DNA of 64,000 bases from a virus, in the IMG/VR virus record IMGVR_UViG_3300047548_000145, positions 1-64,000 of that record; one strand, 5' to 3'. The notes under the pieces are model-generated. The model worked only from the letters and a program-made list of their open reading frames with translations, did no database searches and had not been told where the DNA came from. Shown one piece after another: positions 16,364-18,721 of this stretch. The stretch's first letter is position 1. The number at the start of each line of letters is the position of its first letter. The translations under genes and the position numbers were made by a program.

Positions 16364-16393
16364 CAAATGTAATACTAAATTCTGAACTGACAA
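16364..16393 (-). promoter_or_regulatory. Bacteroidota-type promoter
   Basis: Minus-strand TTG (16391-16393), 19 bp, TACATTTG (16364-16371), 22 bp before the ATG at 16341. It provides a second entry point downstream of the ribozyme-bearing operon. Confidence 0.65.
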
Positions 16394-16399
16394 ACTTTT

Positions 16400-16579
16400 T
16401 TAGAAATTATTTTCAATGAACTGGATGAGGGACTTTTTTGTACGGAAGTACATAGTGTGTACGTTCGTCTGCAGGTGGTTGCCCTCAAGTAGTGCCCAAG
16501 ATTTCAGGTATCTGGCAGGCCATTGTGCGTATGCAAAGTAGAAGGTCTTTCCGTTGTGGGTGATGCTCTGTGCTTTCAT
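16400..16579 (-). CDS. Small hypothetical, 59 aa
   Basis: ATG 16579 to TAA 16400; MKAQSITHNGKTFYFAYAQW. Aromatic-rich, probably a compact beta/alpha fold. The predicted cut of hammerhead ribozyme 1 would leave a 19-nt leader on its mRNA. Confidence 0.65.
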   Translation of the reverse strand: MKAQSITHNGKTFYFAYAQWPARYLKSWALLEGNHLQTNVHTMYFRTKKSLIQFIENNF

Positions 16580-16592
16580 TTCGATCGATTTT

Positions 16593-16644
16593 GGTTAAGA
16601 CGGGCTTTCGCCCGTTTCGGATATTCAATCCTCGTCAGTTAACC
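16593..16644 (-). ncRNA. Type I hammerhead ribozyme, copy 1
   Basis: Read on the minus strand: stem I GGTTAA/TTAACC, core CTGACGA, stem II GGAT-TGAAT-ATCC, GAAA, stem III ACGGGC-GAAA-GCCCGT, then the cleavage residue C. All invariant core positions (C3 U4 G5 A6 N G8 A9, G12 A13 A14, A15.1-U16.1, H17) are present. Stems II and III differ from copies 2 and 3 by compensatory changes. Cleavage is predicted between 16599 and 16598. The 5' GGTTAA doubles as the last sense codon and stop codon of the upstream gene. Confidence 0.92.
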
Positions 16645-16791
16645 TTTTAGCATTTTGTTTTTCATTTCTTCGAGCGCCCAAAGTTTGTAGCGCCATAGTG
16701 CGGCAGGGCTCAACTTGTTGGGGACATTAAGGCTGTCCTGCAGGTCTTGGATGGCGGCTATGGTGTCCATCTTTTTTGCTTCGTATTCCAT
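16639..16791 (-). CDS. Small hypothetical, 50 aa
   Basis: ATG 16791 to TAA 16639, MEYEAKKMDTIAAIQDLQDS. Helical, basic C-terminus. Its stop codon lies inside stem I of hammerhead 1, so a ribosome terminating there would cover the ribozyme's 5' strand. Confidence 0.6.
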   Translation of the reverse strand: MEYEAKKMDTIAAIQDLQDSLNVPNKLSPAALWRYKLWALEEMKNKMLKG

Positions 16792-16829
16792 TTTGATAGT
16801 GTTTTTAGTTTTGTTAGTGTATGTTAATA

Positions 16830-17030
16830 TTAGTATTTCTTTTCGGCTGCGTCAAGGAAGGAAATAACGCTAACAGCGAACAGCATCAGGGGGAGGATGC
16901 AGATAATGGCGATACTTGCAGTGATTTCCCCGCCCATTTCTTGGTGACGGATTGTGGCGTAAAGCATAGCGCCTGACTGAATAGCACAAAGTAGCATCAG
17001 GACCGCACGGAAGGTTTGCGTGATTTTCAT
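16830..17030 (-). CDS. Small membrane protein, 66 aa
   Basis: Two transmembrane segments (residues 7-26 and 37-58). Leader begins at the predicted hammerhead 2 cut site 29 nt upstream. Unknown function. Confidence 0.65.
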   Translation of the reverse strand: MKITQTFRAVLMLLCAIQSGAMLYATIRHQEMGGEITASIAIICILPLMLFAVSVISFLDAAEKKY

Positions 17031-17053
17031 TTCGATTGAATTTAGTGTTTCTT

Positions 17054-17103
17054 GGTTAAGACCCCCGAAGGGGTTTCGGCTACTTAAGCCTCTTCAGTTA
17101 ACC
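17054..17103 (-). ncRNA. Type I hammerhead ribozyme, copy 2
   Basis: Minus strand: stem I GGTTAA/TTAACC, core CTGAAGA (N7 = A), stem II GGCT-TAAGT-AGCC, GAAA, stem III ACCCC-TTCG-GGGGT closed by a stable UUCG tetraloop, then C17. Cleavage predicted between 17060 and 17059, 29 nt before the ATG at 17030. The sequence is identical to copy 3 except for one base at the variable position 7. Confidence 0.93.
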
Positions 17104-17115
17104 TGATTTACCGCT

Positions 17116-17499
17116 CTAACCGAATACTATCTCGCTGAAGAACACCTGCTGAAGGATGCAGTCGGCTGTATCTGCGTCATCACGCTCTTCAATCATTTCA
17201 AGCAATTTGTTGACAGGAGTTTGCTGAACTCGCTCGTGAACGTCCTGCAGATTGATGCTGTAACTCTCCTCCGCATCGAGGTCAACTATAGTCAGGCTTT
17301 TCCCGTCTCGCAGAATTTGCATCAGCACGTCCACGTAGCACACATCTGAAGCCTCCTTCACCAACGTAGCATTCGCAGAGGCATAGTCAACAGCCTCGTA
17401 AGTAAGTTGAAGGTCGTAGTAACCCATCTGCGCTAAGCCATTGCACAGGGCGTTGTAGAAGTACATTTCGCTCTCTTGGGGGGTCAATTTGATTTCCAT
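17116..17499 (-). CDS. Acidic hypothetical protein, 127 aa
   Basis: MEIKLTPQESEMYFYNALCN followed by a mixed acidic protein rich in Asp/Glu, ending in a hydrophobic FFSEIVFG. Flanked on both sides by hammerhead ribozymes, so its mRNA would be released as a single-gene unit. Function unknown. Confidence 0.65.
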   Translation of the reverse strand: MEIKLTPQESEMYFYNALCNGLAQMGYYDLQLTYEAVDYASANATLVKEASDVCYVDVLMQILRDGKSLTIVDLDAEESYSINLQDVHERVQQTPVNKLLEMIEERDDADTADCILQQVFFSEIVFG

Positions 17500-17521
17500 T
17501 TCGATTGAATTTTAGGATTTT

Positions 17522-17571
17522 GGTTAAGACCCCCGAAGGGGTTTCGGCTACTTAAGCCTCGTCAGTTAACC
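17522..17571 (-). ncRNA. Type I hammerhead ribozyme, copy 3
   Basis: Minus strand: stem I GGTTAA/TTAACC, core CTGACGA, stem II GGCT-TAAGT-AGCC, GAAA, stem III ACCCC-TTCG-GGGGT, C17. Cleavage predicted between 17528 and 17527, 28 nt before the ATG at 17499. As in copy 1, the GGTTAA strand contains the stop codon of the upstream gene. Confidence 0.93.
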
Positions 17572-17834: not shown

Positions 17835-17864
17835 CAAACATACGGCAACAATCTGAATACGCAA
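17835..17864 (-). promoter_or_regulatory. Strong Bacteroidota-type early promoter
   Basis: Minus-strand TTG (17862-17864), 19 bp, TATGTTTG (17835-17842), 35 bp before the ATG at 17799. Best match to host consensus in the control region. It drives the hammerhead-bearing early operon leftward. Confidence 0.75.
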
Positions 17865-18470: not shown

Positions 18471-18530
18471 ATACCGTACATCATACCGTACATCATACCG
18501 CACATCATACCGTACAAGATACCGCACATC
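18471..18530 (+). repeat. Five tandem 12-bp iterons
   Basis: Units of ATACCGTACATC with two variants (ATACCGCACATC, ATACCGTACAAG) repeat five times at exact 12-bp period. They are followed at 18531-18546 by the palindrome ATATGC-GTGT-GCATAT. The pattern fits binding sites for a replication initiator or a cooperative regulator. There are no spacers, so it is not a CRISPR. Confidence 0.75.
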
Positions 18531-18721
18531 ATATGCGTGTGCATATAAGAATCTGTTCTTAGACTTGTTTATATGCTTGTGCGTATACAGTTCAGGAATC
18601 TGTTGACTTTTGGGAAGTAATTCGGGTATTCCTAGAATTGAATAGGTAAATCTGACATAAAAGCAGACCTCTGGGCGGAGTATACAGCATCCCCATAACC
18701 TCCTTAGTAGTGTCGTCAGTG

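What the first reader, a model, noticed from the sequence alone, without database searches (positions are those of the whole stretch)
16593..17571. Array of three type I hammerhead ribozymes between early genes
Three copies (16593-16644, 17054-17103, 17522-17571) carry every invariant base of the hammerhead core: CTGANGA, GAAA, the A-U closing pair and C17. Stem I is GGTTAA/TTAACC in all. Copy 1 differs in stems II and III by paired substitutions, which is covariation within one genome. Each is placed after one gene's stop and 19-29 nt before the next gene's ATG in the first operon behind the strongest early promoter. Cleavage would turn the polycistronic early mRNA into single-gene pieces with 5'-OH ends. 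Hammerheads are known in phages, but I am not aware of a tandem intercistronic set of this kind.
Basis: partly seen in the sequence, partly recalled or inferred. Interest (0 to 1): 0.95.

Follow-up and report, generated by a model that had tools for sequence, protein, structure and literature searches.

The report
Phage self-cutting RNAs between genes
Three small self-cutting RNA enzymes (type I hammerhead ribozymes) sit between neighbouring genes of a bacterial virus, where they probably chop one long message into shorter ones; the idea was published in 2011, but this virus's version belongs to a large standardised family found in many viruses and also in some bacterial chromosomes, with cultured viruses in which its purpose can now be tested.

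Summary
On the minus strand, 16593-16644, 17054-17103 and 17522-17571 carry complete type I hammerhead cores, the only ones in the window.

Comparative evidence is strong. A pattern blind to stems I and III finds viral sites of which 122 of 124 have both stems, against about 1% of random positions. All stems covary. Elements lie in sense between genes: the preceding stop is inside or beside the element in 254/299 (random 13%), and an ATG follows within 60 nt in 268/289. Long phage records carry 1-9 copies.

Most likely they split the leftward operon's mRNA, leaving 19-29-nt 5'-OH leaders. Tandem intercistronic phage hammerheads with this hypothesis were published in 2011 (PMC3088659), so the novelty claim falls. 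Apparently new: the family's size and uniformity, the stop codon embedded in stem I, natural stem II alleles in cultured Flavobacterium phages, and the same element in a conserved Flavobacteriales chromosomal operon.

The parts
17522..17571 (-). Hammerhead ribozyme, copy 3 (first in the transcript): stem I GGTTAA/TTAACC, core CTGACGA, stem II GGCT/AGCC with loop TAAGT, GAA, stem III ACCCC-TTCG-GGGGT, C17 at 17528; predicted 5'-OH at 17527
   Evidence: own core scan, CM R1 E=4e-14
17054..17103 (-). Hammerhead ribozyme, copy 2: same as copy 3 except N7 = A; C17 at 17060; predicted 5'-OH at 17059
   Evidence: E=1e-13
16593..16644 (-). Hammerhead ribozyme, copy 1: stem II GGAT/ATCC with loop TGAAT, stem III ACGGGC-GAAA-GCCCGT; C17 at 16599; predicted 5'-OH at 16598
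   Evidence: E=4e-17; orthologous element in L102 differs only at N7, in two compensated stem III pairs and in the tetraloop
17566..17799 (-). Gene 1 of the operon, 77 aa, no known family; its TAA stop (17566-17568) is part of stem I of copy 3
17116..17499 (-). Gene 2, 127 aa, weak C-terminal match to phrog_2355 (unknown function); leader 28 nt from cleavage site of copy 3
16830..17030 (-). Gene 3, 66 aa, no known family; leader 29 nt from cleavage site of copy 2; no ribozyme between it and gene 4
16639..16791 (-). Gene 4, 50 aa, no known family; its TAA stop (16639-16641) is part of stem I of copy 1
16400..16579 (-). Gene 5, 59 aa; leader 19 nt from cleavage site of copy 1; 68% identical homologue in L102 is also preceded by a hammerhead
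17835..17864 (-). Bacteroidota-type promoter-like motif TTG-N19-TATGTTTG ahead of gene 1 (weak evidence; motif not clearly enriched in the window)
16364..16394 (-). Promoter-like motif TTTG-N19-TACATTTG behind gene 5, marking the likely start of the next transcription unit (weak evidence)

Best explanation
The three elements are active type I hammerhead ribozymes that cleave the leftward operon transcript in cis, 3' of C17, as it is made. Each cut leaves the upstream message with a folded ribozyme and a 2',3'-cyclic phosphate at its 3' end, and gives the downstream message a short defined 5'-OH leader (28, 29 and 19 nt here; family median 24 nt) ending at the next ATG. The polycistronic mRNA for small orphan phage proteins is thus split into gene 1, gene 2, genes 3+4 and gene 5. 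Because the preceding gene's stop codon is usually inside or beside stem I, a terminating ribosome would cover stem I and part of the core, so cutting probably happens before ribosomes arrive or after they leave, and it separates the translation and decay of neighbouring genes. Shown: core, stems, covariation, orientation and placement. Inferred: cleavage itself, its timing and the benefit (independent decay and expression; 5'-OH ends avoiding 5'-monophosphate-dependent decay).
For: Complete core with three stems in all copies. The stem-blind pattern finds viral sites of which 122/124 have stems I and III, against 186/20000 random positions. Covariation: 13 of 16 pairs have changes on both sides, 244 cells against 67 in shuffles (pairing itself was a selection criterion there). 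The orthologous element ahead of the gene 5 homologue differs only at the free N7, in two compensated stem III pairs and in the loop. Sense placement: ATG within 60 nt in 268/289 (antisense 38; random 35%), median leader 24 nt; preceding stop at -20..+30 in 254/299 (random 13%). 60 of 61 multi-copy loci have all copies on one strand. 1-9 copies per long record. Independent precedents of cleavage in cells: A. tumefaciens array in E. coli, and the HF1/HF2 transcript 5' end at the site (PMC3088659). The same element is conserved with covariation between two cellular genes in Flavobacteriales.
Against: No cleavage or RNA-end data for this phage. Not every gene junction has an element (genes 3/4), so single-gene splitting is incomplete. 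Some Flavobacterium phages carry a stem II allele with two mismatches, so activity at that site is either robust or dispensable. In 4 of 18 consensus hammerheads tested in 2011 no cleavage was seen (PMC3088659).
Confidence: 0.83

Rival explanations
1. The ribozymes cleave, but the main purpose is the 3' end: the folded ribozyme with a cyclic phosphate caps and protects the upstream message, and the new 5' end is a by-product.
For: A type I hammerhead leaves nearly the whole structure on the upstream product. The element directly abuts or contains the upstream stop codon.
Against: The distance to the downstream ATG is also tightly kept (median 18 nt from the element, interquartile 15-25), which a pure 3'-protection role does not require.
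Confidence: 0.2
2. Non-catalytic structured spacers or mobile repeats that only resemble hammerheads, spread by recombination.
For: Copies 2 and 3 are almost identical; many copies per genome; sizes vary in stem III.
Against: Catalytic bases are invariant while stems covary and N7 and loops vary freely. Copies are nearly always in sense and at a narrow distance to an ATG. 122/124 stem-blind matches are complete.
Confidence: 0.04
3. Paired ribozymes release unit-length RNAs that are re-ligated into circles or trans-spliced products, since all copies in this phage share stem I.
For: Shared stem I would let any upstream 3' end pair with any downstream 5' end; type I products keep the catalytic part with the cyclic phosphate (discussed in PMC3088659).
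Against: Stem I identity is not a rule across the family: within-locus identity averages 0.23 for stem I and 0.22 for stem II in loci found with a stem-I-blind pattern. No RtcB ligase gene in the record. The 2011 study looked for spliced and circular products and found none.
Confidence: 0.05
4. Regulated cutters whose cleavage is gated by a ligand, salt or ribosome traffic, so that operon splitting is switched during infection.
For: The stop codon inside stem I would allow gating by terminating ribosomes. Regulation by environment was proposed for HF1/HF2 (PMC3088659).
Against: Loops are minimal (5-nt loop II, tetraloop III), with no aptamer-like extension in this phage.
Confidence: 0.12

Closest known systems
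Clustered prophage hammerheads of Perreault et al. 2011 (PMC3088659), e.g. the A. tumefaciens triple array around ardA
   Same: Several hammerheads in tandem flanking single genes or short gene blocks in phage DNA; proposed mRNA splitting; cleavage shown in vitro and in E. coli.
   Different: Found in prophages of Clostridium, Azorhizobium and Agrobacterium with types I-III. The present elements are one uniform type I design; no match to model R1 in 200 sampled genomes of the family of the Rhizobium contig L124 (strict filters, no positive control).
HF1/HF2 halovirus hammerhead (HHphage)
   Same: Between two early genes: 1 nt after one CDS and 11 nt before the helicase CDS in the current HF2 record; transcript 5' end mapped to the cleavage site (PMC3088659).
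   Different: Type II architecture (Rfam RF02276) and a single copy; not found by model R1.
Hammerhead of Pseudomonas phage PaP3 (PMC3088659, Fig. S6 legend)
   Same: Model R1, built without it, finds one element in PaP3 (33 bits): CTGATGA core, short stem I directly after a TAA, next gene downstream. Also missed by Rfam thresholds.
   Different: Stem II is interrupted, stem III is long and imperfect, and it is a single copy. I inferred, but could not confirm from the figure, that this is the published element.
Rfam RF00163 Hammerhead_1 and RF03152 RAGATH-1 hammerhead
   Same: Same type I order of stems and the same core; sub-threshold matches of 17.5 and 22.3 bits to copy 1.
   Different: Score far below the curated cut-offs (34 and 56.3).

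Membership tests
Hammerhead ribozyme (catalytic core) | CUGANGA, GAA, A15.1-U16.1 pair and H17 (not G) | tested here: met
   All three copies; C17 in each
Hammerhead ribozyme (catalytic core) | Three helices around the core, supported by covariation | tested here: met
   phages; Flavobacteriales orthologues; orthologous pair; stem-blind test
Hammerhead ribozyme (catalytic core) | Self-cleavage 3' of position 17 in Mg2+ | not testable with these tools
   Needs in vitro transcription
Type I hammerhead | 5' and 3' ends in stem I; stems II and III closed by loops | tested here: met
   minimum-energy folds of copies 1 and 2 give exactly this; for copy 3 the energy model prefers a slightly different fold
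Rfam RF00163 Hammerhead_1 | Score at or above 34 bits | tested here: not met
   17.5 bits for copy 1; no hit in the window or record; none in 15 relatives' loci
Rfam RF03152 RAGATH-1 hammerhead | Score at or above 56.3 bits | tested here: not met
   22.3 and 19.8 bits
Tandem intercistronic phage hammerheads (Perreault 2011) | Several hammerheads in sense flanking single genes in phage DNA | tested here: met
   family-wide
Short-stem family described here (model R1) | A + 6-bp stem I + A, 4-bp stem II with a UNANU loop, stop inside or beside the element, ATG about 18 nt on | tested here: met

The most novel reading that the evidence does not exclude
These elements are copies of a standardised, portable RNA-processing part: a 6-bp/4-bp hammerhead that supplies the upstream stop codon and the downstream leader in one ~70-nt unit, so that placing it between two genes turns a polycistronic mRNA into independent messages and couples cutting to ribosome release. 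Phages of Bacteroidota and other hosts use it in their small-gene regions, and marine Flavobacteriales use the same part in their own chromosome between a TonB-dependent receptor gene and a lipoprotein gene.
Probability: 0.4. Interest if true: 0.75.

Novelty: new member of a known kind. Interest (0 to 1): 0.58.

Why it matters
What hammerheads do for phages and bacteria is called an open question in a 2017 review (PMC6155905). This family gives uniform placement statistics over about 300 elements and names cultured phages that carry it: Flavobacterium elemo phages on host BAL314, and Pelagibacter phages HTVC019P, HTVC131P and Jormungand. The elemo phages have natural paired and mismatched stem II alleles, which makes the question directly testable. 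It also shows that Rfam thresholds miss this widespread group, so automatic annotation does not see it; in the elemo phages a probably spurious reverse-strand gene (gp65) is annotated over the ribozyme. A conserved chromosomal operon with the same element would be an unusual case of a hammerhead in cellular gene expression.

Tried and rejected
1) Universal constancy of stem I (GGTTAA/TTAACC), first suggested by the seeded search, was rejected after a stem-I-blind search gave 70 different stem I pairs among 147 elements. Sharing of stem I within a locus is no greater than that of stem II (per-locus means 0.23 and 0.22), so a trans-acting reader of stem I is not needed. 2) RtcB-type ligation partner in the phage: none found. 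3) Relatives by DNA similarity in GenBank phages: none for the 2-kb region. 4) Short blastn probes in GenBank phages found the elemo and Pelagibacter elements, but also chance hits (Paenibacillus, Streptomyces, Salmonella), which I did not use. 5) Agrobacterium-type arrays as members of this family: not supported, no R1 match in 200 genomes of that family, but without a positive control. 6) Promoter claim: motifs are present but not clearly above chance. 7) PHROGs/Pfam on the flanking genes: no informative function.

Full report
WHAT IS THERE. The three elements are real and lie on the minus strand, in the direction of the genes around them. Read 5' to 3', each is GGTTAA, CTGANGA, a 4-bp stem II with a 5-nt loop, GAA, stem III starting with A15.1 and ending with U16.1, C17, then TTAACC. 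An independent scan for the hammerhead core with three stems over both strands of the 64-kb window returns exactly these three. A covariance model built from 47 elements (46 from other phages plus copy 1) returns the same three in the window and the whole record. Copies 2 and 3 differ only at N7; copy 1 differs by a compensated pair in stem II and by a different stem III.

RFAM. At curated thresholds Rfam has no hammerhead hit in the window. On a short stretch the type I model aligns over its full length to copy 1 with 17.5 bits (cut-off 34) and RAGATH-1 with 22.3 (cut-off 56.3). Over 15 loci carrying many relatives there was again no hammerhead hit. As a control, the HF2 hammerhead was found by Rfam (type II model), while PaP3, a phage with a published hammerhead, gave no hammerhead hit.

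THE FAMILY. A second pattern that fixes only the core and loop II, leaving stems I and III free, gave at least 120. Among its testable matches in newly fetched viral loci, 122 of 124 had stems I and III, and stem I was exactly 6 bp in all 122; random positions gave 186 of 20,000. In bacterial genomes the same pattern is mostly chance (19 of 83 complete). Over 306 unique elements, stem II is 4 bp in 272, the base before stem I is A in 295 and the base after it is A in 282, and loop II is mostly UNANU (loop II was part of one of the search patterns). A fixed stem length next to conserved A's and a conserved loop is what a stem I-loop II tertiary contact would look like; that contact is inference. 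Pair counts on 47 sequences show changes on both sides at 13 of 16 pairs; those sequences were selected for having stems, so the fairer tests are the stem-blind one and the orthologous pair: the element ahead of the gene 5 homologue in L102 (protein 68% identical) differs from copy 1 only at N7, in two compensated stem III pairs and in the tetraloop.

PLACEMENT. An ATG with an open frame of at least 30 codons follows within 60 nt in 268 of 289 elements on the sense side and in 38 on the antisense side; random sense positions give 35%. The cleavage-site-to-ATG leader has a median of 24 nt. The stop of the preceding gene falls between 20 nt before and 30 nt into the element in 254 of 299, against 13% at random. 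Peaks lie at the UAA of stem I, the UGA of CUGA and a UAG formed with the first G of stem I. In the window the stops of genes 1 and 4 are the UAA of stem I. Of 61 loci with several copies, 60 have all on one strand, with a median spacing of about 540 nt. Forty-four long records have 1 to 9 copies. The downstream genes are small (median 76 aa) and those sampled have no known function.

WHOSE PHAGE. The record is 67.2 kb. Its terminase and portal match PHROGs 6681 and 6547. The closest named terminases are an uncultured podovirus (48%) and Flavobacterium elemo phages (40%), then Cellulophaga and others, so a Bacteroidota host is likely. Promoter-like TTG-N19-TANNTTTG motifs bracket the five-gene operon, but the motif count in the window (9) is within the range of simulated sequences (mean 5.1, maximum 12), so 'early' and 'strongest promoter' are inference.

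NATURAL ALLELES. Elemo phages of Flavobacterium sp. BAL314 carry an element of this family (one found in elemoE_6-9C), under a probably spurious reverse-strand ORF. Between strains, stem II is GACT/AGTC, GGTT/AACC (both changed pairs compensated) or GACT/AACC, which has two mismatches. This is a ready test series.

MECHANISM. The best account is cis cleavage after C17 during or soon after transcription, splitting the operon mRNA. Precedents with data are the A. tumefaciens array cleaving in E. coli and the HF1/HF2 5' end at the cleavage site (PMC3088659). Which end matters, and whether ribosome termination gates cutting, is open.

NOVELTY. The kind of thing and the hypothesis are known since 2011; hence 'new member of a known kind'. 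The parts not found in the held literature are the scale, the standard geometry, the embedded stop, the natural alleles and the chromosomal operon. Most subscription papers could not be searched, so priority is not established.

SIDE FINDING. Model R1 rings once in each of 24 of 298 sampled genomes of one order, the Flavobacteriales. In all 24 the element sits directly behind the 3' end of a TonB-dependent receptor gene. In most it is 16-21 nt ahead of a ~95-115-aa lipoprotein gene with a C-x-x-C-H motif; in three my simple start search stopped at an earlier ATG. Stems covary in this orthologous set: 11 of 16 pairs have changes on both sides against 5.2 in shuffles, although that alignment was fitted to the structure.

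Noticed in passing
L138, L155, L159, L185, L191, L192, L331-L352 (Flavobacteriales chromosomes): A hammerhead of the same design lies between a TonB-dependent receptor gene and a small Cys/His-containing lipoprotein gene, once per genome in 24 of 298 sampled genomes, with covarying stems. It looks like a cellular, non-phage use of an intercistronic hammerhead.
   Followed up: partly
L127, L140, L152, L183 (Daejeonella, Mucilaginibacter, Aquimarina chromosomes): Strong hammerheads of the family with no gene start just downstream; context unknown.
   Followed up: no
L045 (record G015, 82.7 kb phage): Seven elements in the record, several followed not by an ATG but by a shared sequence close to AAAAGTCAGGTGCAGACTATAACAGGC; a second conserved part may ride with the ribozyme.
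   Followed up: no
L144 (5.8-kb contig binned with Aliivibrio) and record G033 (L224): Eight elements in 5.8 kb and nine in 4.3 kb; the densest arrays seen.
   Followed up: no
NC_055854.1 gp65 (L315:7290-7397) and homologues in other elemo phages: A short reverse-strand 'hypothetical protein' is annotated over the hammerhead; probably not a gene.
   Followed up: partly
Pelagibacter phages HTVC019P, HTVC131P, Jormungand, MedDCM-OCT-S35-C6 (L316, L308, L307, L309): Members, mostly with A17 instead of C17, upstream of the MarR-type regulator and integrase genes; Jormungand also has ardA nearby, echoing the published A. tumefaciens context.
   Followed up: partly
window 18480-18540 (+): Short direct repeats of ATACCGTACATC/ATACCGCACATC in the divergent region between leftward and rightward genes; possible control or replication region.
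   Followed up: no
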